From a virus, in IMG/VR virus record IMGVR_UViG_3300032117_000189, positions 1-20,380 of that record: a stretch of DNA of 20,380 nucleotides. One strand, 5' to 3'. Below the pieces are notes generated by a model. It worked only from the letters and a program-made list of their open reading frames with translations. It searched no databases and was not told the origin of the DNA. The position numbers and the translations under genes are program-made. Below are positions 866-20,380 of the stretch, piece by piece. The stretch's first letter is position 1, and every line of letters starts with the position of its first letter.

Positions 866-891
866 ATTTTTTCCTTAGAAGTTTGTTCTAG

Positions 892-2433: not shown

Positions 2434-2687
2434 TAGATTTCTCCTGTGGGACTAGTTGAAACAGTTTCCTGGTTCTTAGAATTTTTTGTTGTTGATGCGG
2501 GCTTGGGCGCGACTTCTTGGACCTCTGAAACAACTGGGTCGGGGATAATCGAAGCCTGACCATTTGAGATAAGGTTCTCAATAACCGGCGTTAGATTAAC
2601 AACATGGGTTTCCCCCATTGCCATCGGCTGCCCCAAGTCGTCAAACACTACATAGTCCGACTGGATGATGATTGTAACTAAGTTCAT
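2433..2687 (-). CDS. Small tail-region protein, function unknown
   Basis: 84 residues. The ATG overlaps the previous stop (ATGA) and its own TAA overlaps the sheath ATG (TAATG), so it is translationally coupled on both sides and almost certainly real. The N-terminal half (residues 1-55) is hydrophobic and beta-like, with VVNLTPVIENLISNGQASI; the C-terminal 30 residues are a disordered Pro/Lys/Ser/Thr tail. No family is recognised. Its place between tail terminator and sheath suggests a role in tail or connector assembly; this is inferred from position only. Confidence 0.75.
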   Translation of the reverse strand: MNLVTIIIQSDYVVFDDLGQPMAMGETHVVNLTPVIENLISNGQASIIPDPVVSEVQEVAPKPASTTKNSKNQETVSTSPTGEI

Positions 2688-4796: not shown

Positions 4797-4802
4797 AGTA
4801 GC

Positions 4803-5108
4803 CTATTCCTTTGAGCGTCGCTTGGTGGTTGATGTTACTTCTAAAGCCTCTGAGAGGTCGTCTCCGGGCTTTTCTTCTACAACAGGTGGCTTAGGAGCCG
4901 CCTTTTTGGAAACAGCCTTTTCGACCGCAACCTTTACTTCTTCTTCAATCTTCTTTACTTCTTTTTCAACAACAAAAAAGAGTTCTCCAGGAATTGAAAG
5001 TAGTTCGTGCGCAAGGCGAGGATGTACCTCAATAGCGCCCTCCGCGCCTACTTTTTCCCAAACCAGTCCGGCAGCGCCGCCCAGTTCTTTCTTTGCTAAC
5101 AAAACCAC
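4803..5108 (-). CDS. Small head-region protein with charged helix, unknown
   Basis: 101 residues if translation begins at the GTG at 5108, which has GAAAGG 8 bases upstream; a TTG two codons earlier (5114) is too close to that site. The N-terminal half (VLLAKKELGGAAGLVWEKVG) could be a small folded domain; residues about 45-75 are a Lys/Glu/Val helix of coiled-coil type; the C-terminus is disordered and basic. TAG stop. It follows the GC hairpin behind the major capsid gene, so it is probably expressed at a lower level than the capsid. No family recognised. Confidence 0.65.
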   Translation of the reverse strand: MVLLAKKELGGAAGLVWEKVGAEGAIEVHPRLAHELLSIPGELFFVVEKEVKKIEEEVKVAVEKAVSKKAAPKPPVVEEKPGDDLSEALEVTSTTKRRSKE

Positions 5109-5135
5109 TTTCAAAACCTTTCGATAAATCCAGCA

Positions 5136-5172
5136 CAGCGGGCGGGGGAGGAACGAGGGGCCCCGCCCGCTG
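5136..5172 (-). terminator. Strong GC hairpin after the major capsid gene
   Basis: Perfect 12-bp stem (CAGCGGGCGGGG at 5136-5147 pairs with 5161-5172) around a 13-nt loop. It lies 47 bases beyond the capsid stop, in the only sizeable gap of this part of the operon. There is no U-tract after the stem on the minus strand, so it may be an attenuator or an mRNA 3'-end stabiliser rather than a full terminator. Either role would raise capsid mRNA relative to downstream connector genes. Confidence 0.5.
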
Positions 5173-5218
5173 CACTAGAAGTGTGTGCTACTTAACCAGT
5201 AACAACAAGTTGACTAAA

Positions 5219-6757
5219 TTAGTCAACAATGAAGTTAGGCGTGTACGACGTGTTGGTCGGCGTGTAGCCGTTACCAGCGGTGCTGTCGAGCGCGGCACGA
5301 ACGTTAGCCAAACGACCAATGTACTTCGGAGCGCGAATAGCGAGCGTGGTGTCCGCAACAAAGGCGAACGGCAGGCTGTCGGGCGAAGCGGTGGTCGGGA
5401 ACACGTTGACGGGCTGCATTTCACGCACGAACGGACGAACAATGTAGTTCGGGTCACGTGACATGAGGTAGATGCTCTGCTCGCCGTTTGAAGTCAACGG
5501 GTTGAGGCCGGTGTTCTTGTAGTAGTACGACGTGGGCGCAACACCAATGGCGTTGGTTCCGTTACCAGCGACAAGGGCGGCGCCGGTGTCGGTGATAGTG
5601 GTCGTGGACCAAGTGTTGCCTGTGCTGTCGAGGTAGAACGCGTCAACAATACCGATAAGGGTGAAGTTGGTGTTTACCGACTGCGAAGCACCAGCGGCGG
5701 TGCGGTACACCTTGTAGTGCGTAGGCTGCGAGCCCTCGGGACCCGTGGGGGTCGAGAAAGACAACTTAACACCACCGGTGGCGGGCGCCGCCGAGGCAGC
5801 AACCGAACCCTGGATTTCGCCAAAGCGGGCGATAACAGGAGCAACGACGTAACCGTAGGTGCCATTCAACGTACCGGTGATGGACGAAGTGGTCGTTGTG
5901 ACCGTGCCCATCTGGTTGGTACGAGGCGACAGGAACGAAGACTTGACAATAGGGACGCCACGGTAGGTCGGAACAATCAGACCTGACTGGATTTCCACTT
6001 GGTCAACGAAACGTTGCTGGTTGATAAGCAGTTGCGAAAGACGGCTGTTGGCCGCGGGTGACATGACGAACATCCACTCGGAGTTCTCAACCGGCTCGGC
6101 AACGTTGGACTCAACCATGTCGATAAGAAGGTCAAGCGAACCCAGAGACAGGTTGTTGCCGCCCATGTTGATGGCGTTCTGGTCGATACCGTCTGTCCAG
6201 GGGTTGGCAATGCCGCCCCATGTAACTTCGCCACCGTAGTTGTCAATTGTGCCGCCGCCGATGCCCTGAGCAGGGCCACCAGTCGAAGCAGAAGTGAACG
6301 ATGAGCAAATGACGTCAAGACCGTCGAACTGCGGGTAAGGGCCGTATGTTGTGGGCAGTTCAGCACCCCAAATGATAGCGGCTTCCATGTCCCAGTAAAG
6401 ACCGCGGGCAGCGCCCTCGATTTCACGGGCGCGCAAGTCACCAATCAGGTCTGCGGTAACAGCCTGCGAGTAACCCGTAACGGCGCCAACGCTCTGAAGC
6501 AGACGAATCTGAAAGTTCTCCTGAGCGTAGTTGGACACGGACACTGAGCGAGCACCACCGTCGGTTACGAAACCACCGGTAGGCAACTGAGTGCGCTTGT
6601 TGAAGTAGTAAACTGTTGAGCCCCACTTGACCGTCGGCAGCGAGCGAACGAGCGGCGCATAGCGACGCTGGTACTCAAGCAATACGGGGTCAATCTGCTT
6701 CTGTACGAGTGCAGCAGCACCCGCGGCAGTAAGGGCCTCTTCCAAATCGTTAGCCAT
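5219..6757 (-). CDS. Major capsid protein (HK97-type fold)
   Basis: 512 residues, ATG at 6757 with AAGGAGA 9 bases upstream, TAA stop. Early features fit an HK97-fold capsid protein without a long delta domain: an N-terminal helical segment, LEYQRRYAPLVRSLP, the strand-rich stretch GSTVYYFNKRTQLPTGG, and a long helix (LRAREIEGAARGLYWDMEAA). The segment VENSEWMFVMSPAANSRLSQL, then TYRGVPIVKSSFLSPR, is the usual P/A-domain part of such proteins. Residues about 285-412 look like an inserted Ig/fibronectin-III-like domain (THYKVYRTAAG core, Thr/Ser-rich strands), after which the capsid fold resumes at SNGEQSIYLMSRDP. It follows the scaffold gene, as expected. Confidence 0.88.
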   Translation of the reverse strand: MANDLEEALTAAGAAALVQKQIDPVLLEYQRRYAPLVRSLPTVKWGSTVYYFNKRTQLPTGGFVTDGGARSVSVSNYAQENFQIRLLQSVGAVTGYSQAVTADLIGDLRAREIEGAARGLYWDMEAAIIWGAELPTTYGPYPQFDGLDVICSSFTSASTGGPAQGIGGGTIDNYGGEVTWGGIANPWTDGIDQNAINMGGNNLSLGSLDLLIDMVESNVAEPVENSEWMFVMSPAANSRLSQLLINQQRFVDQVEIQSGLIVPTYRGVPIVKSSFLSPRTNQMGTVTTTTSSITGTLNGTYGYVVAPVIARFGEIQGSVAASAAPATGGVKLSFSTPTGPEGSQPTHYKVYRTAAGASQSVNTNFTLIGIVDAFYLDSTGNTWSTTTITDTGAALVAGNGTNAIGVAPTSYYYKNTGLNPLTSNGEQSIYLMSRDPNYIVRPFVREMQPVNVFPTTASPDSLPFAFVADTTLAIRAPKYIGRLANVRAALDSTAGNGYTPTNTSYTPNFIVD

Positions 6758-6807
6758 GGCTAATTCTCCTTAAATATTTTGGATAGGGGGTTTGTTGTTG
6801 CTTTTGC

Positions 6808-7392
6808 TTAGTAGCCGCGGTCGGCCTGGGCAAACTTGTGTGCGAAGAAGGGCGATGAACCCCAGATTTCGCTCTGGACCTTGCGGAAGTTCGTCGAAGA
6901 CATTTCGGCCAACTTGCGGGGGTCCAGTTCCTCCGACTCTGACAAGTCAGAGGCGTCGTTTCCTACTGAACCACTGCCGACGTAACCCTTACGGAAGGTT
7001 TGGCCTCCGTTGCGGTACGACTCAACAGCATTCTTCTTTGTCTCGGCAACAGCAGCCTCGGCAGCCGACTTGGCAGCCTCAGCAATCATTGCTTGAACTT
7101 GCTCAGCGGTAAAAAGGTTTTCGCTCACGGTATTCTCCTGTGATTCGATAGATTCTTCAGCAGTGGCCTCGGCGGCAACTTCCTCTTCGGCAGGAGCCTC
7201 AGCGGCCTCTTCCTCTTCGGGAGCAACCTCAGCGGCAACTTCTTCTTCTGGTGTTGATTCAACGGGCTTCTGGGCGGCCAAGATAAAGCCGGCCAATGCC
7301 TTCAGGTCTGCATCGGACATGGTGCGGGAAGCGGTCGATTCGAGCGCAATTTCCTCAGCCGGAGCCTCAGCAGTGGTCTGGTCGTCAGTCAT
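6808..7392 (-). CDS. Scaffold protein from an internal in-frame start
   Basis: An in-frame ATG at 7392 (Met460 of the protease-scaffold fusion) is preceded by AGGAGG with 8-base spacing, as strong a ribosome site as any in the window. It lies exactly at the border between the zinc-ribbon region and the Glu/Ala-rich scaffold. Starting there gives a 194-residue protein holding only the scaffold helix and C-terminal tail. This is the same arrangement as lambda C/Nu3, where a protease gene contains a nested scaffold gene. The codons under the site encode Glu-Glu-Glu-Val, so part of the match could be protein-driven. Confidence 0.55.
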   Translation of the reverse strand: MTDDQTTAEAPAEEIALESTASRTMSDADLKALAGFILAAQKPVESTPEEEVAAEVAPEEEEAAEAPAEEEVAAEATAEESIESQENTVSENLFTAEQVQAMIAEAAKSAAEAAVAETKKNAVESYRNGGQTFRKGYVGSGSVGNDASDLSESEELDPRKLAEMSSTNFRKVQSEIWGSSPFFAHKFAQADRGY

Positions 7393-8769
7393 AGTGACTT
7401 CCTCCTCTGTTTTGGTTAAAGCATCGTCGCTCGACTCTGCTTGTGATACGGGTTTTCCACAAGTGGAACAGTACATGGCCGCCTGGGGAATAGACATTCC
7501 GCAACCATCGCAACCATCCCAGTCAACGGGGCTTTGAGGCACTAGCGTGCCACACTGGTGACAGAAAATTGCGTCTTCTGCGCATTCGGTGCCACACTCG
7601 GCGCATTCCATGTTGTTGTCGTCATGCTTAGCCATTAGGTCGTCATCCTCTGGCCCCATGCCGCTGGCGTCGCCAGTTGCATCTACCTGTGACCAGTCAG
7701 GCTTAGAAAGGTAAATGTCGCCGTCGTCATCGGGGTCAATGGCGTGCATGGCGGCAATTGCGCCAAAAGCAATGCGGTTTGCAACAACCTTCAACTGGTG
7801 AGGGTCAGTGGCATAGCCGGTAATGCTGATGCTATCGTCATCGTTGACAAGGGCGATAGAAGCGTATGCTTCGAGAACTTCTTGAACGTCAGCGGCCAAC
7901 ATAGCGTGTTCGCTGACAATGTTGATGCCAAACTTCTTGGCGGCAGACTTGATGCGAGACTTAACTCGGGCAAGTTGCGCGACGGTGTAAAGACTGGCGT
8001 GATGGCCCTGATTAATATATGACCAAGCAGCACGAACATGCGCAGCGGTGTTAATCGGGTAACGCTTTTTCTTGTCCTTCTGGTAGCCAGGGTCGGCGTA
8101 AGTAACGTCACCGTAGGGCTTTGAGGTGTCCTTTTCGCCAATAGAGTTAATGGCGTTTTCAACAGCCTCTTCTACAGCGTCACGAATAATATCGGCGGCT
8201 TCTGCAATCACGACTTCCTCTTCCCGAGAGATAATTTCCACAGGGTCAACAGACTCGTAGATTGCCAAGCGATTGCCGGCACGGTGTGACTCGGCAAGGG
8301 CGGCGTATTGAATTTCGGCCCCATCAACACCAGGGCTATTTGTAAAATCGATACCGTGGATAGCAAGGTCATCGGCCGTTGTGGCTTCACCGCCGTCGGT
8401 GTGAGTAACCGATTGCGGCTCGCCTCGCCATTCGCCACGAATAGAAACGCCCTTAATGAACTTGCCAACCGTAAGAGCGGCAATGTCACGGCCGTGCGCC
8501 GTGTTGGGAACGTCTGCTTCGAAAGAAGCCGAGCCGTCCTTGTTGAGCCAAACGCTGGTGATGTTGCCAACGGTTGAAAGCGCATCGTCCTTAAATGCGG
8601 CACCATGGCTTGTGGCCATGCTCAAAGGCATACCGTCGCCGGAAGCCAATTGTTGCTGCATACGCTCTACGGCTTTTGAAATATTGCCGCGTGTGTACAA
8701 ACGGCGGTTTTTTGAAAGGCCGGGCTTCAGAAAAATACCACGAATAGTGGCTGCCTTGGTTGAGGCCAT
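6808..8769 (-). CDS. Prohead protease fused to scaffold, with two zinc ribbons
   Basis: 653 residues from ATG 8769, which has AGGAG 8 bases upstream; a longer reading from 8832 overlaps the previous gene and has no such site. Residues 1-150 are the maturation protease: TIRGIFLKPGLSKNRRLYTR, the SHG motif with candidate catalytic His55, and FIKGVSIRGEW with candidate Ser109. Residues about 215-285 form a helical module starting YADPGYQKDKKKRYPI, seen in other phage and plasmid proteins. Residues 389-437 hold two zinc ribbons (C389-x2-C392...C403-x2-C406 and C420-x2-C423...C434-x2-C437). Residues 460-580 are a Glu/Ala-rich scaffold helix and the C-terminus ends SSPFFAHKFAQADRGY. The protease would cut the scaffold and itself during prohead maturation. 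Confidence 0.83.
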   Translation of the reverse strand: MASTKAATIRGIFLKPGLSKNRRLYTRGNISKAVERMQQQLASGDGMPLSMATSHGAAFKDDALSTVGNITSVWLNKDGSASFEADVPNTAHGRDIAALTVGKFIKGVSIRGEWRGEPQSVTHTDGGEATTADDLAIHGIDFTNSPGVDGAEIQYAALAESHRAGNRLAIYESVDPVEIISREEEVVIAEAADIIRDAVEEAVENAINSIGEKDTSKPYGDVTYADPGYQKDKKKRYPINTAAHVRAAWSYINQGHHASLYTVAQLARVKSRIKSAAKKFGINIVSEHAMLAADVQEVLEAYASIALVNDDDSISITGYATDPHQLKVVANRIAFGAIAAMHAIDPDDDGDIYLSKPDWSQVDATGDASGMGPEDDDLMAKHDDNNMECAECGTECAEDAIFCHQCGTLVPQSPVDWDGCDGCGMSIPQAAMYCSTCGKPVSQAESSDDALTKTEEEVTMTDDQTTAEAPAEEIALESTASRTMSDADLKALAGFILAAQKPVESTPEEEVAAEVAPEEEEAAEAPAEEEVAAEATAEESIESQENTVSENLFTAEQVQAMIAEAAKSAAEAAVAETKKNAVESYRNGGQTFRKGYVGSGSVGNDASDLSESEELDPRKLAEMSSTNFRKVQSEIWGSSPFFAHKFAQADRGY

Positions 8770-8795
8770 TTCTAAATCTCCTGTAAAAATAGTGG

Positions 8796-9308
8796 TTAAA
8801 GCGGCGTAAACGACTTGCCGCGGCCTCGCCATTTGTGAACATGGTGAAACCGTTTGGAACGAGGTTTTATTCGGTTCTTAAAACCGGGTTTTCTCGCTGT
8901 GCCCCATGCGGTTCGTTCAAGAAAACGACCGGGGGCAAGTTCTCCGTGGAATTTTTTAACCTTACCGCTAATGCTCGGTTTTTTGAGGGTCACTTTTTGG
9001 TGATACCCAATCCATCGAACACCTATTGCATGTTGCTTAATGGAAGCAAGATACAATTCGGCATATACGCGGTCTCGGGTTTTGTTCCCACGATATTTGG
9101 CGCTTTGATAGTTAAGCGCATTTGACTTTGCGGCTGAAGTTTTGTGGTAATAGCCCTTGGCCGCTCGGGCTGCAATAAGGTTATTCCGCTCAGCCGTTAT
9201 TTGAGCATACGTTTGGCTGCCGGCCGGGTATCGATAATGGGTGGCAAACGCACCCGCTTGACCCATATAGCCAGCATGGTAAACCTGTGGTGTTGGTGAA
9301 GTAGCCAT
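8796..9308 (-). CDS. Basic protein between portal and protease, unknown
   Basis: 170 residues, ATG at 9308 directly after the stop of the small gene upstream, TAA stop 26 bases before the protease start. It is very basic: the last 60 residues carry many Lys/Arg/His (KKPSISGKVKKFHG, NRIKPRSKRFHHVHKWRGRG). The N-terminus is Tyr/Ala-rich (VYHAGYMGQAGAFATHYRYP). No motif of a MuF-type head protein is seen, although that family often occupies this place. A DNA-contacting internal head protein is possible from charge and position but unproven. Confidence 0.7.
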   Translation of the reverse strand: MATSPTPQVYHAGYMGQAGAFATHYRYPAGSQTYAQITAERNNLIAARAAKGYYHKTSAAKSNALNYQSAKYRGNKTRDRVYAELYLASIKQHAIGVRWIGYHQKVTLKKPSISGKVKKFHGELAPGRFLERTAWGTARKPGFKNRIKPRSKRFHHVHKWRGRGKSFTPL

Positions 9309-9309
9309 A

Positions 9310-9438
9310 TTAGCCTACTTCTTTTGGCACCAGTGCTGCCGCCTTGGCGGCGGTAAGACCCAAGAAGGGGTAAACAGGCTGTCCTTCGCTGTAAAAAACA
9401 ACACCGTTAATTTGCTCGGGTTGTTGATTAATTGCCAT
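9310..9438 (-). CDS. 42-residue protein downstream of portal
   Basis: Starts at ATG 9438 inside the last codons of the portal gene (11-base overlap) with GAGG about 10 bases upstream, and its TAA ends one base before the next ATG. The protein begins MAINQQPEQINGVVFYSEGQ and contains the segment VYPFLGLTAAKAAALVPKEVG. It has no Cys and no membrane segment. The tight fit between two genes and the ribosome site support it as real. Function unknown. Confidence 0.6.
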   Translation of the reverse strand: MAINQQPEQINGVVFYSEGQPVYPFLGLTAAKAAALVPKEVG

Positions 9439-10978
9439 CTTCATCATCCTCTTGCAGGTAGGGGGCGTAAAGCGTTTCCGTGCCAGATGGAGCCTTGGGC
9501 GTTGCTACAGAAGCAGGCGCTTGGCTTGTCTTTGGCTTTCCCGACGAAGGGCTCGCGGCAGACTGTGGCTTCTTTGCGCCCGCGCCTTTGGGTGCCCCTG
9601 GATTAGTGTTTGGCAGTTGTGGCATGTTCATCGTGCCGCCCTGGTTTTGCACAACCAAAAGGTTGGCGGCTGACAGGTCGCTAAGGTCAGACCAAAGAAC
9701 CATGTTTTGCCGGTCAATAAGAACAGCGTCGTCGCCGCCCTTGACGGGGGGTTCGCCAATGTCAGAGCGAGCCTTGTTGAGGGTCCACGTACCGTTACGA
9801 ATTCTCTGGTCGCGAATCAACTCAATAACTTCGTCGTCTCGCCAGTCAACAACGCCAAACTTAAGAGTCCAGTCGGTAATGCCGTAGGCAAGATAAAGAA
9901 GAGAAAACGAAAACTTTTCAAGGACAAGTTCCTGAATAGGGCCAACCGTGTTAACACGGAAAGTCTTGTCCTGTTGGGTTCCCGTTCCACCGCCAAGGTT
10001 ACCGGCTTCAATAACGCCGACCTTGGATGGAGGGACGCCGTATCCAGATAAAATCTCGTCACGGCGCTGTTGCAAGGTGTTAAGCCAATTGTTAATTTGG
10101 TTTGAACCCATTTCGGTGACGACCGCGCCACCCTTGGTTTCAAACAAGTTACCAATGTTTCTAGCACCAAGATTACGAATAGCGTATTGTTGCTGAAGTT
10201 TCTTCATTTCCGCTTCAGGCAAAGCAATTGGCCAGTCAACGTGTGCTCGCAGGGGGTCTCCGCGCTTCATTGTCTCTTTGACAAGAGCGGCAGTAAACAG
10301 CCACGAGGTAATAGGAAGAATGTTCTTTTGAGTCGGGGAAACACCATACAGCGTCGCTCCGGGGGAGTCAAACTTAACGTGAATGATTTCATTAGGCCGA
10401 AAACGCGCTTCACGGTTGGTCGGCGTCTTTTGGTAGTAGCCCTTAATAACACCGTGCTCATCGGCAAGAACGCTCATTGAGGTTGGGTCAAGCGGGTAAA
10501 GAGCCACCGGCTCGCCCATAACCCAAACGACTTCAGTGAATGAGTCGCCAAAAATCATAAGGTCTGTAATAACCTGGCGCATCAACTGTCGAATGTCGTC
10601 CGTGGGGTTAACATACTTCAAAAGTTGCTGAACCTTTGAAACCTCTTCAGGCGCCTTAGGGGTTTTTGTGGGACCGGTCATGCCGCCATCGTAAGTAACT
10701 TCAAGTCCACCTGCGGTAGCGGTGCGCGCAATTGTGTCAATAGCCGCTGAAGACCAAGGGCAAGCAAGGTACGCTTGCAACAACTGCTGCATAAACGTTG
10801 CACGGTCAAGGGTTCCAGCGGTTACGTTTTCACCGGGGTTAACCTCTGTTGAGCCGCCAACAGGCACGCCCGTTGCATAACCGGCGCGCTTTGGCAGGCT
10901 TTTGGGCCGCGCCTCTAGGATTTCGTCGAAGGTGCTTGCGGCCTCTTCGAGACCCCTTCTAAAAGATGTAATAGCCAT
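9428..10978 (-). CDS. Portal protein
   Basis: 516 residues, ATG at 10978 with an AAAGAAAG site upstream, TAA stop. It sits directly after the large terminase. Recognisable portal features are YLACPWSSAAIDTIARTA near residue 70, the wing/stem region around HVKFDSPGATLYGVSPTQKN, and the long helix PITSWLFTAALVKETMKRGD leading to the clip. The last 70 residues are low-complexity Pro/Ala/Lys/Ser and end in an acidic tail (YLQEDDEDGN). Twelve copies would form the ring through which DNA is packaged and leaves the head. Length is typical for the HK97-type portal family. Confidence 0.88.
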   Translation of the reverse strand: MAITSFRRGLEEAASTFDEILEARPKSLPKRAGYATGVPVGGSTEVNPGENVTAGTLDRATFMQQLLQAYLACPWSSAAIDTIARTATAGGLEVTYDGGMTGPTKTPKAPEEVSKVQQLLKYVNPTDDIRQLMRQVITDLMIFGDSFTEVVWVMGEPVALYPLDPTSMSVLADEHGVIKGYYQKTPTNREARFRPNEIIHVKFDSPGATLYGVSPTQKNILPITSWLFTAALVKETMKRGDPLRAHVDWPIALPEAEMKKLQQQYAIRNLGARNIGNLFETKGGAVVTEMGSNQINNWLNTLQQRRDEILSGYGVPPSKVGVIEAGNLGGGTGTQQDKTFRVNTVGPIQELVLEKFSFSLLYLAYGITDWTLKFGVVDWRDDEVIELIRDQRIRNGTWTLNKARSDIGEPPVKGGDDAVLIDRQNMVLWSDLSDLSAANLLVVQNQGGTMNMPQLPNTNPGAPKGAGAKKPQSAASPSSGKPKTSQAPASVATPKAPSGTETLYAPYLQEDDEDGN

Positions 10979-10992
10979 CTGGTTATCTTTCT

Positions 10993-12516
10993 TTAAAAGG
11001 GACTAAGCCCAAAGTCTCCAACAAATAGACCACCAAAGTTTGGCTGCCTTAGTGGAGGGGCATCGTCTTCTTTTACGATAACCATTGTATCAGGAACACC
11101 CGCCTTGGGCATTGCTGAATCATTATAAATAACGGGCCGAGCGTAAACGCCTGCATACATGCAAACATAGCGCAAAGCATCGGGGATGTGGTCGTCAACG
11201 TTGCGCGTTTCAGAGTCATCCGGTTTTGCGGCGCTTCTAGGCAATGCCGGAATCTGCTCAATAAACATTGGGCATTTGTCTTCAAAAACATGAAGCATCG
11301 GGCATTTGGTTTTTCCCTCTAAACGGTGCAACTCGCAAGCGGGCGCATCATTGAGGTATTGGTGGACTCGGGCCCAACCATTTATACGGTCGTTGTTGGC
11401 GGGCATAATGCCACAACCATTGATGCCGTAATCGTCTGCAATTGAAAGCGGGGTTCCGCGGCTTCCCCACATTGAAGGGTCGGCAACACGAATAACTTCG
11501 TTTTCGCCAGCGCCGCGTTCGGTTTCAATAATTAGTTTGGCTTGTTCGTCCGAGTTGTAACCAGACGTACAAATTTCCCTATACACCCACATACGACCGT
11601 CATTGTCCATTGCGACCCACACGACCGCAAAAGGGTCCTTGAATCCATAGTCAATTCCTGCGTATCGAGGCCATTCTTTGGGAAGGTCAAAAGAACGAAC
11701 AACGTGCTTTGAGTATTGCCACTGTTCAAAGAACTGTCCAACCATTGCGTCCCAATCGCCATCTCGCATGGCGGCGCGGCGGCGCGGGTCAGGAATAGAG
11801 TCAAGAACTGCGTGATACCCTTCATTGACGTGAGGGTTGTCGGTAACTTTGGCTTGAATAAAAGCAACGCTTCTAGTGCGGTTGTTGTCGCCAATTTTTT
11901 CTTCGTACCGCACCTTCCCACGCTTAGTGGGATTGATGAAACGGTCTTTGAGGTACTTGTGGCCAATTCCGCCAGGGTTCGTTGCCAAACGAAGGCCGAT
12001 AACTGGGACCAAGCGGCTGCCGGAACGAAGACGCTCTTCAATGTGCTGAATAACCGCGGGAAGCATTTGTGAGGCTTCGTCAATGTAAAACGCTTGGTAT
12101 TCACCACCAAGAATTCGGGAGGCGTCTACAAGGTTTTCGGCGTATGTAAAGTTGATAATAGAACCGTTAGCGAACTTTAAAACCTTGTTGGTTGAGTTCC
12201 ACTTGGCACCAAGGTCACGACCATAGTTCCATTTGGCCAATTGAGCCAAGAATGATTCTTCCAACTCTGGGTACGAACGCCGGAAACAACCGATTTTCAT
12301 ACCAGGGTGGTTGGCGGCGTTATAAAGCGCATCCATCAAAAAGGCGGCGGTTTTGCCACCACCGGCGGCTCCACCATACAAAATAGCGTCAACTCGTTCG
12401 GCAGAAGCAGCGTGAAAAACCTGTTGGCGCTCTGTGGGAACGTAGCCAAGAATCTCAAACACGTTAACTTCAGGCGGTTTGACCGAATCCGAAATAAACT
12501 TGCTAAAGGAAGACAT
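10993..12516 (-). CDS. terL: Terminase large subunit
   Basis: 507 residues; ATG at 12516 overlaps the preceding TAA (TAATG). The N-terminal ATPase has Walker A GGAAGGGKT (48-56), Walker B AFYIDEAS (142-149, Asp146/Glu147) and the coupling motif LATNPGG (177-183). The C-terminal RNase H-like nuclease shows GIDYG (Asp289), VADPSMW (Asp346) and DDHIPDALRY (Asp441/442 and Asp446), a full acidic triad. It would cut concatemeric DNA and pump it into the prohead through the portal encoded next. No classical small terminase gene is recognisable beside it; the 194-residue gene at 12999 is a positional candidate. TAA stop. Confidence 0.95.
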   Translation of the reverse strand: MSSFSKFISDSVKPPEVNVFEILGYVPTERQQVFHAASAERVDAILYGGAAGGGKTAAFLMDALYNAANHPGMKIGCFRRSYPELEESFLAQLAKWNYGRDLGAKWNSTNKVLKFANGSIINFTYAENLVDASRILGGEYQAFYIDEASQMLPAVIQHIEERLRSGSRLVPVIGLRLATNPGGIGHKYLKDRFINPTKRGKVRYEEKIGDNNRTRSVAFIQAKVTDNPHVNEGYHAVLDSIPDPRRRAAMRDGDWDAMVGQFFEQWQYSKHVVRSFDLPKEWPRYAGIDYGFKDPFAVVWVAMDNDGRMWVYREICTSGYNSDEQAKLIIETERGAGENEVIRVADPSMWGSRGTPLSIADDYGINGCGIMPANNDRINGWARVHQYLNDAPACELHRLEGKTKCPMLHVFEDKCPMFIEQIPALPRSAAKPDDSETRNVDDHIPDALRYVCMYAGVYARPVIYNDSAMPKAGVPDTMVIVKEDDAPPLRQPNFGGLFVGDFGLSPF

Positions 12517-12791
12517 TACCTAAACCAAAGTACAAATGACCATGCAACAGCAAGAGCGCTGCTTGTCAAAATGGCTACACCTAATGTAGAGCGGACAAAA
12601 CAAGAAGCCTTTACAAGTTCAATGTGGACGGCGGCTTGAGAAATGCTTAGAGCATTATTCATACGAATCAAACCCAGGGTTTCTTCGTATTGTGTGTCGC
12701 CCATAATTTTGCGCGCTTCGATTTCGCCCTCACCTACAAGGTAGCCAAGGCTATCAATAATAGAACGGGCTTCTGAGTTGTCGTTTTCCAT
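12516..12791 (-). CDS. Small single-pass membrane protein upstream of terminase
   Basis: 91 residues, ATG at 12791 and TAA overlapping the terminase start. Residues 1-60 are soluble and charged (EGEIEARKIMGDTQYEETLG); residues about 68-90 form one membrane helix (STLGVAILTSSALAVAWSFV) ending in WFR. The layout suggests a C-tail-anchored protein with its N-terminus in the cytoplasm. It is coupled to the terminase gene. A role in packaging or lysis cannot be deduced; one helix and the long N-terminus are not typical for a holin. Confidence 0.7.
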   Translation of the reverse strand: MENDNSEARSIIDSLGYLVGEGEIEARKIMGDTQYEETLGLIRMNNALSISQAAVHIELVKASCFVRSTLGVAILTSSALAVAWSFVLWFR

Positions 12792-12998: not shown

Positions 12999-13583
12999 TC
13001 AAGTATTTAAAATTGGGCGGCGCGCGGGGGGTGCTTCCGTCACCAAAACCTGACCATCGGATGAGGTCAATTGATGCATATAAGCACGCCAGCGAAAACG
13101 GTCCGGCGCTCCTGCATCGACCCATTGGACGTAGCAATCAGAACACATAGCGGTTTTAACGGCAGGGAGAATCGTGCAAATCTCGCAAGGTTCGCTTGCT
13201 TGACGCTTGCGCTTTTTTTCAACGCCTTCTTTAAGAAAATTAATGCTTTCAAGAATTTGGCGCAGGTTTTCTTCCGATTGAATAATCTTTCGCTCGATTT
13301 TACGAACTTCTTCACGCACGGTGTCTTTGGGCTTCTTGCTTCTCATGCTCGCTTCTGCCGCGCGTTCGGTCGGGGTCAACTCCGAAGAAGAGCCACGATT
13401 GGATGCGGCAATACTGGTTCCCGTGTTGGAAACGGCATAAGTGTCAAGGCCAATTTCATCTCGGCGCACAAGATTCTCAAGTTCAACGGCAGAAATCTTG
13501 TTGGTAAAACGCCCAATGGCTTCAAGAGAATCGGTCATCCGCTTAAGGCGCTGCTGAGAACGACGATTTAGTTTCTTTGCCAT
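12999..13583 (-). CDS. Cys-pair (zinc-binding) coiled-coil protein, possible terminase-associated
   Basis: 194 residues, ATG at 13583 with GGAGG 6 bases upstream, TGA stop. It has a basic N-terminus (MAKKLNRRSQQRLKRM), a likely coiled coil at about 85-127 (VREEVRKIERKIIQSEENLR), and two Cys pairs (C133-x2-C136 and C147-x2-C150) that could bind one zinc ion, followed by RFRWRAYMHQL. Position two genes ahead of the large terminase and the basic/coiled-coil build would suit a small terminase or another DNA-binding accessory, but no helix-turn-helix is evident. Function not assigned. Confidence 0.7.
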   Translation of the reverse strand: MAKKLNRRSQQRLKRMTDSLEAIGRFTNKISAVELENLVRRDEIGLDTYAVSNTGTSIAASNRGSSSELTPTERAAEASMRSKKPKDTVREEVRKIERKIIQSEENLRQILESINFLKEGVEKKRKRQASEPCEICTILPAVKTAMCSDCYVQWVDAGAPDRFRWRAYMHQLTSSDGQVLVTEAPPARRPILNT

Positions 13584-13628
13584 TGGTTCCTCCGGCTATA
13601 GCGAGGGGGCGACAAAAGCACCCACTCT

Positions 13629-13657
13629 AATGTAAAGTTACAACAAAAAATTTACAA
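13629..13657 (-). promoter_or_regulatory. Possible leftward promoter before the late block
   Basis: On the minus strand, TTGTAA (13657-13652) and TACATT (13634-13629) are 17 bases apart, each matching 4 of 6 consensus positions. Transcription would start near 13622, 39 bases before the ATG at 13583. The gap 13584-13659 is the largest non-coding stretch in the leftward block apart from the one after the capsid gene. Moderate match only. Confidence 0.35.
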
Positions 13658-13659
13658 AG

Positions 13660-14013
13660 TCAAGGATTTAGGTCAACCTGATTTTTAACGCAATAATCGT
13701 AGGCTCTCAAAAGTACAAGCCAGGAATCAAAGTCTTGGGTGGCATACGCTTTGCGGGCATTTTTGCCTCGACGCTTGTGTACTACCACAAACGGTTTGCC
13801 GGCTTTTTCTGAAGCAATTTCGGCTTGTTTCATCCAAGCAGCCAACGCCATTGTTTGTTGGTTTTTTGCTTCAAGAACAATTGGGATTCCATCAATGTCT
13901 CCGAATTCCCAGTTAATAGGACCGGGGCGGTGCGCCTCAGGAAAACCGTCTTCGTTAAGGATTTTTACAATTTCGCTTTCAAACGAAGTCCCTTTGGCGC
14001 GTGCTTTGCTCAT
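13660..14013 (-). CDS. PD-(D/E)xK nuclease, Holliday-junction-resolvase-like
   Basis: 117 residues, ATG at 14013 overlapping the previous TGA (ATGA), TGA stop. The order of motifs fits the Hjc/VRR-type PD-(D/E)xK fold: KGTSFESEIVKILN with Glu12, then GDIDGIPIVLEAKNQQ with Asp39, Glu48 and Lys50 as catalytic residues, then a helix and the strand KPFVVVHKRRGKNAR. Such proteins cut branched DNA; in phages they resolve replication or recombination junctions before packaging, in line with its place upstream of the terminase. A restriction-like role is less likely given the small size. Confidence 0.75.
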   Translation of the reverse strand: MSKARAKGTSFESEIVKILNEDGFPEAHRPGPINWEFGDIDGIPIVLEAKNQQTMALAAWMKQAEIASEKAGKPFVVVHKRRGKNARKAYATQDFDSWLVLLRAYDYCVKNQVDLNP

Positions 14014-14297
14014 AGTTGAGCCAATGTGTTTTCCAGCGTTTCATCAACCCATGAATACTCACAGACAAGGCAAAGCCGCTTAAGCCATTCTTCTTTTCCG
14101 TCGGAGGTGTAGACGGTTTTAATTGTTGAACGCATACTTCGGGTTTCATCAACAACTTCACCCTGACGACCGTAAACGGTGCTAATGGTAATAACAATCG
14201 AATCGTCTTCGCATCGGATGCCGCATTTAGGGCATTCGGCAATTACCGAACCACGCGCGGAATGGCTGCCGAAAAGGCTAGGGCCGACCGAAATCAC
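14010..14297 (-). CDS. Zinc-ribbon-like small protein
   Basis: 95 residues from a GTG at 14297 that overlaps the previous stop as GTGA; its own TGA overlaps the nuclease ATG. Cys pairs C22-x2-C25 (ECPKCGIRC) and C76-x2-C79 (LCLVCEYSW) are 50 residues apart with beta-rich sequence between, the spacing of a zinc ribbon. Thr/Ser-rich middle strands (SIVITISTVYGRQG) support a small beta fold. It may bind nucleic acid or act with the adjacent nuclease; this is inference from neighbours. Confidence 0.7.
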   Translation of the reverse strand: MISVGPSLFGSHSARGSVIAECPKCGIRCEDDSIVITISTVYGRQGEVVDETRSMRSTIKTVYTSDGKEEWLKRLCLVCEYSWVDETLENTLAQL

Positions 14298-14515
14298 TTG
14301 AGTTCACCAATGACGTTTTTAAGACCAAACCAAATAATGTAAATTGGCCACGAAAAAGAGTCTCGAAGAATCTTTAGAATCAAAGTGTAAAATTGAACGT
14401 GGAATTCTTGTTCTTTCCACTCCTGCAACGTTCGTTGCGTAATGTAACAAATGCGCACAAGGAAAAAAACCGAAACGGTGACGTACCCAAAAATGCAATC
14501 AATCCAAACCGACAT
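14294..14515 (-). CDS. Two-helix small membrane protein
   Basis: 73 residues from ATG 14515, chosen because AGGAGG lies 6 bases upstream; a longer frame from 14611 would overlap the previous gene by more than 100 bases. Two hydrophobic segments: residues 4-24 (WIDCIFGYVTVSVFFLVRIC) and about 54-68 (SFSWPIYIIWFGL), separated by a charged loop containing QEWKEQEFHVQF. Size and build are compatible with a membrane-active accessory, including a class II holin, but it is not with an endolysin. TGA stop overlaps the next start. Confidence 0.65.
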   Translation of the reverse strand: MSVWIDCIFGYVTVSVFFLVRICYITQRTLQEWKEQEFHVQFYTLILKILRDSFSWPIYIIWFGLKNVIGELK

Positions 14516-14870
14516 TTTCTTCCTCCTGCTCTCCGTAGATTTCTGACCACGCTTTGTTGCTGACCAGTGAAGCACATGATACCACACCATTTTCAACATA
14601 CGCGGTCCCATTGCGAATCACTTGTGTTGCGTTTTTAAGGCCAAGCGCCACAGAGGGCGAATTGCCGTATGCGCTAATTTCTTCTGTCATTTCAAGAATT
14701 GCATAAATTCTTTCGCCTTTTTGCTTCAAACGCGCGGCCCCGACGTTTTCGTTTTGGTCAAAATTTACCAGAAGGGGAACAAGGTCCGGGACAAAAACAT
14801 TGTGGTATGTCAACTCGGGTTGATTGATATGCGCAAGAATGACATACTTGTTTTGAGATGCTTTTTTCAT
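14499..14870 (-). CDS. First gene of the leftward block, unknown
   Basis: 123 residues from ATG 14870 (MKKASQNKYVILAHINQPEL). An upstream ATG at 14888 lies between the putative -35 and -10 elements and has no ribosome site. The start at 14870 is about where transcription from the 14879-14907 promoter would begin, so the message may be leaderless. The protein is mixed alpha/beta with no clear motif and ends in an acidic tail (SEIYGEQEEENVGLD). It overlaps the next gene by 17 bases, TGA stop. Being first after the divergent control region suggests early expression. Confidence 0.65.
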   Translation of the reverse strand: MKKASQNKYVILAHINQPELTYHNVFVPDLVPLLVNFDQNENVGAARLKQKGERIYAILEMTEEISAYGNSPSVALGLKNATQVIRNGTAYVENGVVSCASLVSNKAWSEIYGEQEEENVGLD

Positions 14871-14878
14871 ATGCAAAA

Positions 14879-14907
14879 ACCCTATCATTTCAAGGGTTTT
14901 GTGTCAA
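14879..14907 (-). promoter_or_regulatory. Putative leftward promoter
   Basis: Minus strand TTGACA (14907-14902) and TAGGGT (14884-14879), 17-base spacer. The -35 is perfect, the -10 matches 3 of 6 positions. The predicted start is at about 14872, next to the ATG at 14870. The elements lie in and beside a 14-bp inverted repeat (14888-14901 and 14916-14929), a plausible repressor site. Confidence 0.45.
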
Positions 14908-14929
14908 GCATTTCCCAAAACCCTTGAAA
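14888..14929. repeat. 14-bp inverted repeat over the leftward promoter
   Basis: TTTCAAGGGTTTTG at 14888-14901 is the exact reverse complement of 14916-14929, with a 14-base centre that holds the -35 hexamer of the leftward promoter. As DNA it could be an operator; as RNA from upstream transcription it would form a hairpin. It has no U-tract on either side. Confidence 0.7.
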
Positions 14930-14998
14930 CTTTGGGGTCCTCACCAGTGAGGAGGGGTATATATATTAATATATATATATAAATATAATGCTCAAAAT
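14930..14998. promoter_or_regulatory. AT-rich segment of the divergent control region
   Basis: The palindrome CCTCAC-CA-GTGAGG (14939-14952) is followed at 14958-14989 by an almost pure A/T tract made of alternating TA steps. This is the least GC part of the window and lies between divergent promoters. It could be an unwinding element or a regulator-binding region. No ORF crosses it with support. Confidence 0.5.
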
Positions 14999-15015
14999 TT
15001 GACATGGCCAAAGGC

Positions 15016-15045
15016 TTGACAGCCGCAATTACAGTGTGGTACAAT
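15016..15045 (+). promoter_or_regulatory. Strong rightward promoter
   Basis: TTGACA (15016-15021), 18-base spacer, TACAAT (15040-15045): 11 of 12 consensus matches. Transcription would begin near 15052 and cover the 97-residue gene at 15089, the tRNA-Asn/Arg/Thr trio and possibly the genes that follow. A second TTGACA at 14999-15004 has no -10 partner at a suitable distance. Confidence 0.75.
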
Positions 15046-15088
15046 GTAAGTGCTCACAAACGTGGGCATTCCTACCGGAAGGAAAACC

Positions 15089-15382
15089 ATGTCAGCAACC
15101 GCTAACATTTTTACTGCCGTTGGTACTTCTTGGGCTGCTAGCGCCGTGGGTTTTGTCGCCTATGCTGTTAAGGCTGCAAAGAAGGACAACGCCAAGTTCC
15201 AGGCTTTTATTGCCCACATTGAAACAGAATTTGACAACGTTTTGCTTGAGGTGCAAAAGGTAGAGTTGTCACTTTCCGCCCTCGTCCCCGCGCCGGCTCC
15301 CGAGCCTGCCCCTGTAACGCCTGCGCCTGCAAAGACCGTAGCCAAGCGAGTTTCTACCGCATCAAAGCGTAATTTGCGTTAA
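15089..15382 (+). CDS. Small protein with N-terminal hydrophobic helix and Pro/Ala linker
   Basis: 97 residues, ATG at 15089 with GGAAGGA 6-7 bases upstream; a GTG at 15050 in the same frame sits at the predicted transcription start and is an alternative. Residues 5-30 (ANIFTAVGTSWAASAVGFVA) form a hydrophobic helix, 31-62 a charged helix, then a Pro/Ala/Glu linker (VPAPAPEPAPVTPAPAK) and a basic end (KRVSTASKRNLR). This build suggests a membrane-attached protein with a flexible basic tail that could contact nucleic acid. Family unknown. It is the first gene after the rightward promoter. Confidence 0.72.
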   Translation: MSATANIFTAVGTSWAASAVGFVAYAVKAAKKDNAKFQAFIAHIETEFDNVLLEVQKVELSLSALVPAPAPEPAPVTPAPAKTVAKRVSTASKRNLR

Positions 15383-15392
15383 GGGATTTGCG

Positions 15393-15426
15393 GGGCATGA
15401 AGTGCGCTAAACAACATTTCATGCCC
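15393..15426 (+). other. Hairpin between the 15089 gene and tRNA-Asn
   Basis: GGGCATGAA (15393-15401) pairs with TTCATGCCC (15418-15426), 16-nt loop. It ends 9 bases before tRNA-Asn and has no U-tract, so a processing or mRNA-end-protecting hairpin is more likely than a terminator. Confidence 0.5.
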
Positions 15427-15434
15427 TGTGGCCT

Positions 15435-15506
15435 TGGCCTGTGGCGCAATGGCAGCGCGGGAAACTGTTAATTTCTAGGTTGAAGGTTCGAGTCCTTCCA
15501 GGCCAG
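15435..15506 (+). tRNA. tRNA-Asn (GTT)
   Basis: 72 nt cloverleaf: acceptor TGGCCTG/CAGGCCA, D stem GCGC/GCGC, anticodon stem GGAAA/TTTCT with loop CTGTTAA (anticodon GTT, 15467-15469), T arm GAAGG-TTCGAGT-CCTTC, discriminator G. CCA is not encoded. Confidence 0.92.
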
Positions 15507-15511
15507 CAAAT

Positions 15512-15584
15512 TGGTCAGTAGCATAATGGATAGTGCAACTGGCTTCTATCCAGTCCAGTGTGGGTTCGACTCCCACCTGACCAG
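15512..15584 (+). tRNA. tRNA-Arg (TCT)
   Basis: 73 nt: acceptor TGGTCAG/CTGACCA, anticodon stem ACTGG/CCAGT with loop CTTCTAT (anticodon TCT, 15545-15547, reads AGA), T arm GTGGG-TTCGACT-CCCAC, discriminator G, no encoded CCA. Five bases after tRNA-Asn. AGA is a rare codon in many GC-rich hosts. Confidence 0.92.
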
Positions 15585-15589
15585 CATTT

Positions 15590-15661
15590 GCCCCTGTGGC
15601 GTAACGGTAGCGCAGCACTTTTGTAATGTGAAGGTTGGGGGTTCGAATCCCTCCGGGGGCA
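15590..15661 (+). tRNA. tRNA-Thr (TGT)
   Basis: 72 nt: acceptor GCCCCTG/CGGGGGC, D stem GCGT/GCGC, anticodon loop TTTGTAA (anticodon TGT, 15622-15624), T arm GGGGG-TTCGAAT-CCCTC, discriminator A. The anticodon stem GCACT/TGTGA has only three central pairs (first and last positions mismatched), weaker than usual. Ends 18 bases before the next gene, so it is probably cut from a mixed tRNA-mRNA transcript. Confidence 0.88.
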
Positions 15662-15679
15662 CTTTGAACAAGGAGAAAA

Positions 15680-16588
15680 ATGAAGGAAACGATTTACTGC
15701 GCAGGGCCCATGTCCGGGTACAAAGAGTGGAACTTTCCTGCATTTTATGCAAACTCTGATTACATGCGCTCTTTGGGTTGGGATGTTATAAACCCAGCAG
15801 AGTTGGATAAAAACGTTGGCTTTGACCCCAAAATTGCAACGGAAGAGTTTACCGAGCAACACTTCAAAGACGCCATGAAAAGAGATTACAGAGCAATCCT
15901 TGACTGCGATGCCATTGCGTTTATGCCCGGTTGGGAAAAATCCAGGGGCGCCCGACTTGAGCGTGATTTTGCCAGTCGGCTTGGTTTGCCAATGTACCGA
16001 GTTGACGTTGCCAGCAGTTATTTTGAGCAGGAAAAGATTATTGGCATTGCCGGTTTTGCTCAAAGTGGCAAAGACCTTTTGGCTGGTCACTTTGTAGCAA
16101 ACCATGGGTTTGAACGCGTTGCTTTTGCAGACACCCTCCGTGGTATGCTTTACGAGACAAACCCAATTGTGGCGCTTGTTTACGAAGACCGTTTCCGTGA
16201 AGTTACAAGAGTCCAAAGTGTTGTTGACGCAATTGGCTGGGAGGGCGCTAAATCGGAATACCCAGAAATCCGGGAACTCCTTCAGCGCCTTGGAACCGAA
16301 GCGGGGCGCAAGCACATTGCTGATGACATTTGGAGCCGCACCGTTTTTGAACGCCCGCATTTGGCCAAACTGGTAATTCCCGATGTTCGTTTTCCGAATG
16401 AAGCCAAAGCAATTCAAGACAGAGGCGGGGTTATTATCCGAGTCAAGCGAGATGGCTATGAGCCAATCAATGGCCATATTAGCGAAACCGCATATGACGG
16501 GTTTGACATTGTTCTTGAAAACAACGGGGCGCCAGAAGAATTGTTTGCCAGCGCCGAATCCGCACTGGGGTGGGGCAATGGCAATTGA
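15680..16588 (+). CDS. Fusion of DUF4406/deoxyribosyltransferase-like domain and deoxynucleoside monophosphate kinase
   Basis: 302 residues, ATG at 15680 with AGGAG upstream, TGA stop. Residues 1-110 match the DUF4406 (nucleoside 2-deoxyribosyltransferase-like) pattern: IYCAGPMSG, NFPAFYANSDYMRSLGWDV, and DAIAFMPGWEKSRGARLERD. Residues 119-302 match phage dNMP kinases: P-loop IGIAGFAQSGKD (125-132), FADTLRGMLY, LLQRLGTEAGR, VIPDVRFPNEAKAIQ and the INGHISE motif. The kinase would phosphorylate deoxynucleoside monophosphates for phage DNA synthesis; the first domain may act on nucleosides or modified nucleotides. Either part is common alone in phages; the fusion is notable. It overlaps the next gene by 11 bases. 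Confidence 0.85.
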   Translation: MKETIYCAGPMSGYKEWNFPAFYANSDYMRSLGWDVINPAELDKNVGFDPKIATEEFTEQHFKDAMKRDYRAILDCDAIAFMPGWEKSRGARLERDFASRLGLPMYRVDVASSYFEQEKIIGIAGFAQSGKDLLAGHFVANHGFERVAFADTLRGMLYETNPIVALVYEDRFREVTRVQSVVDAIGWEGAKSEYPEIRELLQRLGTEAGRKHIADDIWSRTVFERPHLAKLVIPDVRFPNEAKAIQDRGGVIIRVKRDGYEPINGHISETAYDGFDIVLENNGAPEELFASAESALGWGNGN

Positions 16589-16790
16589 AAGCATTCTTCT
16601 AAAGGCAAAATTCAGCAAAGAAAAAGACCCAGAAAAATGGGCGGCTGAAATAGAGTATATTGAAGTTCTCCGAGAGCACCTAGATGCAATGGCTTATACC
16701 AAGGTGACGCATCAAAAAGAATTAGATGCTCACAAATTGTATCTTAGGAAACTTAACGAAATCGAGCATCCAGGTGCGTTTAAGTCGTGA
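16578..16790 (+). CDS. 70-residue helical protein, unknown
   Basis: ATG at 16578 lies in the last codons of the kinase gene behind a GGGGTGGGG stretch; TGA overlaps the next GTG. The sequence is highly charged and helical (KFSKEKDPEKWAAEIEYIEV, HQKELDAHKLYLRKLNEIEH), probably a short coiled coil. No Cys. Coupled to its neighbours, so probably real. Function unknown. Confidence 0.65.
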   Translation: MAIESILLKAKFSKEKDPEKWAAEIEYIEVLREHLDAMAYTKVTHQKELDAHKLYLRKLNEIEHPGAFKS

Positions 16791-17076: not shown

Positions 17077-17166
17077 GGGGTAGGGGCACCTAGCCAAGTT
17101 AAGGTTGCGGTGGGTAGCCTGAGGGCAGGTTTGATTAGGTAAGACGTTCGATTCGTCCCCTACCCG
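17077..17166 (+). ncRNA. tRNA-like element without a normal anticodon loop
   Basis: Outer stem GGGTAGGG (17078-17085)/CCCTACCC (17158-17165) and a textbook T arm GACG-TTCGATT-CGTC (17143-17157) are clear. A D-like arm forms from ACCT/AGGT (17088-17091, 17102-17105). Where the anticodon arm should be, the best fold is AGCCTG/CAGGTT (17116-17121, 17126-17131) closed by a four-base loop AGGG; no 7-base loop with T33 could be folded with a paired stem. About 90 nt, class II length. It may be a decayed Leu/Ser-type tRNA or a functional mimic. Lies between tRNA-Met and tRNA-Tyr in the same array. Confidence 0.5.
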
Positions 17167-17258: not shown

Positions 17259-17478
17259 GTGGCAAGGAAAGTAAACGGAGAATGGGCAACAAGGGTTCGG
17301 CAGACGTGCTGGTAATTCCTTTGTGTATACCTCACCGGCCATTAAAAAGAAGTAGCGACCAGTAGTAAACTTAAGTTGGGAGTGGCTTGCAACCGCCTCA
17401 ATGTATCGGTTGGCGAATAATTCCCGTTAACCCCTGGTTGAATGCAAGGAAATGTTTACTAAGTGACTTGCAAAAATA
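17259..17478 (+). other. 220-base spacer in the RNA array, unassigned
   Basis: No supported ORF. TAGTAAAC (17363-17370) pairs with GTTTACTA (17454-17461), enclosing about 83 bases that contain AACCG/CGGTT (17391-17395, 17407-17411) and a T-arm-like hairpin CCTGG-TTGAATG-CAAGG (17433-17449, four of five pairs). AAGGAA/TTCCTT bounds another segment near 17264-17325. GCAAGGAAA occurs twice (about 17262 and 17444). Decayed or unusual tRNA-like RNAs are possible, but no cloverleaf closes properly. Confidence 0.4.
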
Positions 17479-17552
17479 GCAGACGTGGCGTAATGGTAAC
17501 GTTGGGGAATCTAATTAATTCCCTGTCGTGGGTTCAAGCCCCACCGTCTGCT
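17479..17552 (+). tRNA. tRNA with extended anticodon stem, anticodon uncertain (AAT in best fold)
   Basis: Acceptor GCAGACG/CGTCTGC, D arm GCGT-AATGGTA-ACGT and T arm GTGGG-TTCAAGC-CCCAC are all perfect or nearly so. Between them, GGGGAAT (17504-17510) pairs with ATTCCCT (17518-17524), giving a 7-bp stem and loop CTAATTA. With the usual 5-bp stem the loop would have 11 bases. The variable loop is reduced to three bases. Loop geometry gives anticodon AAT (Ile), rare in bacteria; other phasings are possible. Discriminator T, no CCA. Confidence 0.6.
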
Positions 17553-17556
17553 GGTA

Positions 17557-17623
17557 GACAGTGTGGTGTTAGTGGGAGCACCCGGCCTTTGCCGGAGCAT
17601 CGGTTCAATTCCGGTCGCTGTTA
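17557..17623 (+). ncRNA. Short tRNA-like element with tetraloop in place of anticodon arm
   Basis: 67 nt, about five shorter than a tRNA. Acceptor GACAGTG/CGCTGTT, D arm GTGT-TAGTGGGA-GCAC and T arm ATCGG-TTCAATT-CCGGT fold well. Only 17 bases remain between D and T arms, and they form CCGGC-CTTT-GCCGG plus AGC, a 5-bp stem with a 4-base loop (17582-17595). If read as a loop of six or seven bases, anticodons TTT or TTG could be proposed, but position 33 or 37 would then be wrong. It begins four bases after the previous tRNA. Confidence 0.55.
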
Positions 17624-17648: not shown

Positions 17649-17719
17649 TCGGGTGAAATGTTACGGTAGCATGGCGGTCTTCAAAACTGCTCGACTAGGT
17701 TCAATTCCTAACATCCGGG
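17649..17719 (+). tRNA. tRNA-Trp-like opal suppressor, anticodon TCA
   Basis: 71 nt class I tRNA: acceptor TCGGGTG/CATCCGG, D arm ATGT-TACGGTA-GCAT, anticodon stem GCGGT/ACTGC with loop CTTCAAA, T arm CTAGG-TTCAATT-CCTAA (outer pair mismatched). The anticodon TCA (17681-17683) reads UGA. The anticodon arm resembles bacterial tRNA-Trp (stem ending GGT, loop CTCCAAA) with C34 changed to T, and the discriminator is G, as tryptophanyl-tRNA synthetase needs. It is far too short and lacks the long variable arm of tRNA-Sec. Expected function is insertion of an amino acid, most likely Trp, at UGA. Confidence 0.82.
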
Positions 17720-17821: not shown

Positions 17822-17897
17822 TGAGGGGTGGCGGAATTGGTAGACGCGCCAGACTTTGAATCTGGTTTTATTGGGGGTTCGACGCCCTCCCCCTCAG
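17822..17897 (+). tRNA. tRNA-Gln (TTG)
   Basis: 76 nt: acceptor TGAGGGG/CCCCTCA with T1-A72 and discriminator G, both expected for glutaminyl identity; anticodon stem CCAGA/TCTGG with loop CTTTGAA (anticodon TTG, 17856-17858); T arm GGGGG-TTCGACG-CCCTC. The D arm (GCGGAATTGGTAGACGC) and 7-base variable loop are leucine-like, so it may derive from a tRNA-Leu. Confidence 0.87.
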
Positions 17898-20297: not shown

Positions 20298-20380
20298 CAG
20301 GTGACCAGGTGACCAGGTGACCAGGTGACCAGGTGACCAGGTGACCAGGCGACCAGGTGACCAGGTGACCAGGTGACCCC
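20298..20380 (+). repeat. Ten tandem copies of CAGGTGAC
   Basis: Starting at 20298, the 8-bp unit CAGGTGAC is repeated ten times to 20377, followed by CCC at the window end. Only copy 7 (20346-20353) differs, reading CAGGCGAC. Each junction creates GGTGACC. There is no spacer sequence, so it is not a CRISPR array. It begins directly after the terminator. The array may continue beyond the window. Confidence 0.95.

What the first reader, a model, noticed from the sequence alone, without database searches (positions are those of the whole stretch)
17649..17719. Phage-encoded opal suppressor tRNA with tryptophan identity
The cloverleaf has anticodon TCA, which reads UGA, in an arm resembling that of tRNA-Trp, and discriminator G as required by bacterial TrpRS. 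It is class I, so not tRNA-Sec. A UGA-decoding tRNA means the phage can read through UGA, either to extend its own proteins, to adapt late translation, or to disturb host termination.
Basis: partly seen in the sequence, partly recalled or inferred. Interest (0 to 1): 0.8.

Follow-up and report, generated by a model that had tools for sequence, protein, structure and literature searches.

The report
Decaying phage tryptophan tRNA, UGA anticodon
A freshwater phage carries a tryptophan tRNA whose anticodon has mutated so that it should read the stop codon UGA, but its sequence and its relatives look more like a gene drifting towards decay than a working device for reading through stop codons.

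Summary
The tRNA is real: 17649-17719, class I, anticodon TCA, discriminator G. Its Trp origin is shown. A second phage (L078/G025, 53 kb contig) carries the same tRNA with anticodon CCA, 66 of 71 bases identical. All other intact relatives found are tRNA-Trp(CCA).

Use as a suppressor is not supported. All five differences are C>T or G>A. One makes CCA into TCA. Three lie in stems, none is compensated, and all weaken pairing. Neighbouring tRNAs mostly change by compensated pairs. Five random GC>AT changes in the parent give a stop anticodon 23% of the time and an equally or more stable cloverleaf 39% of the time. A sister lineage holds only the 5' half of this tRNA, broken at the anticodon, and two neighbours lack a usable anticodon arm. 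TGA is an ordinary stop in 7 of 22 ORFs, as in close relatives lacking the tRNA. No gene has in-frame TGA.

Best reading: a tRNA-Trp losing constraint, incidentally and perhaps weakly an opal suppressor. A selected suppressor, or escape from anticodon nucleases, is not excluded. Opal tRNAs in standard-code phages are already reported (Atu_ph07, PMC6102473).

The parts
17649..17719 (+). tRNA-Trp-derived gene with anticodon UCA (opal)
   Evidence: 66/71 identical to tRNA-Trp(CCA) of G025
17681..17683 (+). anticodon TCA; CCA in the parent, so C34T
17657..17657 (+). derived change G9A (all outgroups have G)
17688..17688 (+). derived change C41T; G29-C41 becomes G-U
17711..17711 (+). G65A; C49-G65 becomes a C-A mismatch
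17714..17714 (+). C68T; G5-C68 becomes G-U
17719..17719 (+). discriminator base G73
17557..17623 (+). tRNA-like element with a 5-bp anticodon stem and only a 4-base loop, so no usable anticodon
   Evidence: RF00005 31 bits
17079..17164 (+). tRNA-like remnant (acceptor and T arm visible, no normal anticodon arm)
   Evidence: 14.9 bits to RF01852, far below its cut-off; fold
17478..17553 (+). tRNA called Ile(aat), with a lengthened anticodon stem-loop
17724..17808 (+). tRNA-Ser(TGA), intact, compensated changes against a relative
17822..17897 (+). tRNA-Gln(TTG), intact, compensated change against a relative

Best explanation
The element is a tRNA-Trp gene acquired from or shared with another phage, and now under little constraint. 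In this lineage it has taken five GC>AT transitions, one of which turned anticodon CCA into UCA. If it is still transcribed, matured and charged with Trp by the host enzyme, it would decode UGG (by wobble) and UGA, giving low opal readthrough as a side effect rather than as a selected function. Shown: ancestry, the changes, the standard use of TGA as stop, and the broken sister copy. Inferred: weak or absent activity and absence of selection.
For: The parent-like tRNA-Trp(CCA) in G025 scores 45.2 bits against 36.0 here. All five differences are C>T or G>A; those at positions 9, 34 and 41 are derived by comparison with three outgroup tRNA-Trp genes. Three of three stem changes are uncompensated and weakening, while the neighbouring tRNAs show 13 compensated against 4 single changes (Fisher p 0.03). 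Random decay gives a stop anticodon in 23% and equal or better stability in 39% of trials. L008, L010 and L052 keep only the 5' half of this tRNA, ending in anticodon CC. Two other elements of the cluster cannot decode. TGA is an ordinary stop, and none of 22 ORFs (5472 codons, 84 TGG) is broken by TGA.
Against: The cloverleaf remains the favoured fold, with mean pair probability 0.91; only 10% of random five-change mutants do as well. None of the bases conserved in nearly all tRNAs was hit. The two G-U pairs are benign. The number of changes is small, and the copies compared differ in divergence time. The tRNA is identical in two contigs from different metagenomes. Intact Trp-like UCA tRNAs recur in other phages.
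Confidence: 0.58

Rival explanations
1. A functional, selected opal suppressor: Trp-tRNA(UCA) reads UGA to extend some phage proteins (outside this 20-kb fragment) or to disturb host termination.
For: Exact C34 to U change in a tRNA-Trp with discriminator G. Cloverleaf still favoured. The family already carries A24 in the D stem, the base that in E. coli tRNA-Trp (Hirsh G24A, PMC11805395) permits UGA reading with anticodon CCA. Intact UCA tRNAs with similar anticodon arms occur in at least 9 other viral contigs, most of which show no sign of TGA recoding in the stretches held. Atu_ph07 has an opal tRNA in a standard-code phage (PMC6102473).
Against: No in-frame TGA in conserved genes and no conserved extension past TGA stops. 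No shift away from TGA stops compared with close relatives. Uncompensated weakening of stems. Found in a single population only.
Confidence: 0.24
2. Escape from a host anticodon nuclease: C34U changes the cleavage site of tRNA-Trp while wobble keeps UGG decoding, so the phage tRNA replaces cleaved host tRNA.
For: Phage tRNAs with anticodon-loop changes that predict nuclease resistance are described (PMC10264068). Several tRNA elements of this cluster and of relatives are altered exactly in the anticodon arm.
Against: Neighbouring altered arms are destroyed rather than retuned. The change is accompanied by weakening elsewhere. No nuclease of the host is known. UGA suppression would be a cost.
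Confidence: 0.12
3. The phage or its host uses a code in which UGA is tryptophan.
For: Only the presence of the UCA tRNA.
Against: TGA terminates 7 of 22 ORFs at places where homologues use TGA, TAA or TAG. ORFs are not fragmented by TGA. The best cellular matches of the terminase are in Actinobacteriota, which use UGA as stop (established knowledge).
Confidence: 0.02

Closest known systems
tRNA-Trp(CCA) of phages, e.g. contig IMGVR_UViG_3300025423_000028 and Streptomyces phages StarPlatinum and Braelyn (tRNA-Trp)
   Same: Shared D arm and anticodon arm, with unusual A8/U14 and A24 in the viral contigs aligned; 66/71 identical to the first.
   Different: Anticodon UCA instead of CCA; four further GC>AT changes; no encoded CCA end.
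Opal (UCA) suppressor tRNA of Agrobacterium jumbo phage Atu_ph07 (PMC6102473)
   Same: UCA tRNA in a phage that uses UGA as an ordinary stop.
   Different: Sequence not compared here; the window copy is weakened and has a known CCA parent.
[quoted passage not shown]
   Same: Anticodon UCA, thought to insert Trp.
   Different: Those phages are predicted to have TGA as a sense codon in genes; this one does not.
E. coli UGA suppressors derived from tRNA-Trp (C34U su7-type, from general knowledge; Hirsh G24A, PMC11805395)
   Same: Same C34U route to a UGA-reading tRNA-Trp; A24 present.
   Different: Those were selected in the laboratory and tested; here activity is untested and the stems are weakened.

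Membership tests
tRNA-Trp (class I) | Cloverleaf with short variable loop | tested here: met
   RF00005 36 bits; 4-base variable loop; one mismatched T-stem pair
tRNA-Trp (class I) | Nearest relatives are tRNA-Trp | tested here: met
   all intact relatives are Trp(CCA)
tRNA-Trp (class I) | Discriminator G73 | tested here: met
   17719 = G
tRNA-Trp (class I) | Charging by TrpRS | not testable with these tools
   needs a charging assay; A1-U72 and G5-C68 of E. coli tRNA-Trp (from general knowledge) are U-G and G-U here
Opal suppressor tRNA | Anticodon UCA in a 7-base loop | tested here: met
Opal suppressor tRNA | Reads UGA in vivo | not testable with these tools
   no reporter or proteomics
Code-4 phage system | In-frame TGA in conserved genes | tested here: not met
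   only 20 kb of the genome is available
tRNA-Sec | Long variable arm and long acceptor stem | tested here: not met
   7-bp acceptor, 4-base variable loop; best family is RF00005, not RF01852

The most novel reading that the evidence does not exclude
A phage lineage has recently evolved, by one transition in a tRNA-Trp that already carried the UGA-permissive A24, a working opal suppressor that it uses at selected UGA stops in an otherwise standard code. The UCA form and the CCA parent then exist in nature as a near-isogenic pair for testing.
Probability: 0.15. Interest if true: 0.6.

Novelty: new member of a known kind. Interest (0 to 1): 0.27.

Why it matters
It shows a suppressor-type tRNA one mutation away, at the anticodon, from a known phage tRNA-Trp, with a broken copy in a sister lineage. 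UCA tRNAs listed in phage annotations may therefore often be drifting Trp tRNAs rather than evidence of recoding. The natural CCA/UCA pair would make the question testable.

Tried and rejected
Genetic code 4: rejected from stop-codon use and intact ORFs. Selenocysteine tRNA: rejected on structure. Recoding sought from relatives' ORFs against the window: the long list of stops comes mostly from shadow frames and was not used; the gene-by-gene readthrough test found only '*' in the close relatives at the compared sites. In PDDEXK, three distant relatives show W near the site, but their own frames stop a few residues earlier, and close relatives without the tRNA also have a stop there. A 3' half of the broken Trp tRNA was looked for by eye in the L008 stretch downstream of the 5' half and not seen; Rfam found no tRNA there. 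A tRNA of this sequence was sought in cellular genomes: none. The low bit score as a pseudogene test was dropped, since an intact family member scores the same. A literature check for tRNA-Trp cleavage by VapC gave nothing usable.

Full report
What is there. ARAGORN and Rfam both find a tRNA at 17649-17719 with anticodon TCA. It is class I, has discriminator G and no encoded CCA. It lies in a cluster of nine ARAGORN tRNAs plus a tenth RF00005 hit at 17557-17623. The window is a whole 20,380-base viral contig with terminase, portal, major head and tail-tube genes. The terminase's best cellular matches are in an Acidimicrobiia MAG and a Streptomyces (47 and 44%), so an actinobacterial host is likely.

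Origin. Among 77 loci related by terminase, only L067, identical to the window over the shared 2.85 kb, has a TCA tRNA. A pattern scan found the near-identical tRNA in another phage contig (G025, 53 kb), with anticodon CCA and an encoded CCA end. No window protein matches the three G025 stretches, so the tRNA is shared between unrelated phages. More distant relatives in viral contigs and named phages are all tRNA-Trp. Tryptophan ancestry is therefore shown, not inferred from the anticodon loop.

How it changed. Five of 71 bases differ from G025: G9A, C34T, C41T, G65A and C68T, all GC>AT transitions. Outgroups show that positions 9, 34 and 41 changed on the window's side. Two stem pairs became G-U and one became C-A; none is compensated. 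Eight tRNAs were compared in the same way, each with the nearest relative found. The other seven show 13 compensated and 4 single pair changes (Fisher p 0.03). These comparisons span different divergences, so this is moderate evidence. In 5000 simulations of five random GC>AT changes in the parent, 23% gave a stop-reading anticodon, 39% an equal or more stable cloverleaf, 54% as few mismatches, and 10% as high a pair probability. Decay without selection is thus not rejected; nor is it proved.

Fate in relatives. L008, L010 and L052, whose terminases are 91% identical to the window's, carry roughly the first 34 bases of the same tRNA after the Met tRNA, ending in ..GGTCTCC where the CCA anticodon should be, with no tRNA match afterwards. 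In the window cluster, 17557-17623 has a 4-base anticodon loop and 17079-17164 shows only acceptor and T-arm features. The cluster contains broken tRNAs.

Is UGA read? Of 22 ORFs, 13 end in TAA, 7 in TGA and 2 in TAG. For five of the seven TGA ORFs, homologues at 88% identity or more (including other copies of the same population) end in TGA too, and lower-identity close relatives such as L002-L006, which lack the tRNA, also stop at the same place in the ORFs at 12999-13583, 13660-14013, 14010-14297 and 14499-14888. The ORF at 16578-16790 was mis-framed and is not counted there; it was re-read in frame. More distant homologues use TAA or TAG as well. Reading through the TGA stops gives no conserved extension in close relatives. 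No conserved gene is interrupted by TGA. Only about a quarter of a genome of this type may be in hand, given relatives' contigs of up to 79-96 kb, so a special target elsewhere is possible.

Comparison with the known. Opal tRNAs in standard-code phages are reported (Atu_ph07, PMC6102473), and Sup-TCA tRNAs in 11 of 73 phages predicted to use table 4 (PMC11210395). Nine other viral contigs have a Trp-like UCA anticodon arm with a perfect stem; most show no clear sign of TGA recoding in the stretches held, and at least two (L088, L089) have discriminator A and also carry Trp(CCA), so they may not be Trp tRNAs. Phage tRNAs with anticodon-loop changes that evade host nucleases are proposed in PMC10264068.

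Verdict. The functional claim is open and, on present evidence, less likely than loss of constraint.

Noticed in passing
L057:1150-1360 (- strand): A tRNA-Gln-like gene (intact in L007) is interrupted in its anticodon loop by an insert of over 100 bases that contains a complete second tRNA-Gln(TTG).
   Followed up: partly
window 17557-17623 and 17478-17553: tRNA elements with abnormal anticodon arms: one with a 4-base loop, one with a lengthened stem-loop (Ile, aat).
   Followed up: partly
L078/L080, L082, L083, L084 and window 17656-17672: This phage tRNA-Trp family has A8 and U14 (usually U8-A14) and A24, the UGA-permissive base of the Hirsh suppressor; natural UGA misreading by the CCA form might be worth a test.
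   Followed up: no
L088-L096: Nine viral contigs with UCA tRNAs of perfect Trp-like anticodon stem, labelled SeC by ARAGORN; two have discriminator A and also carry Trp(CCA).
   Followed up: partly
window 302-12791 versus 12999-16790: Structural genes end almost only in TAA, non-structural genes mostly in TGA; a similar split is seen in relatives.
   Followed up: partly
window 20302-20375: Tandem repeat of the 9-base unit GGTGACCAG at the contig end.
   Followed up: no
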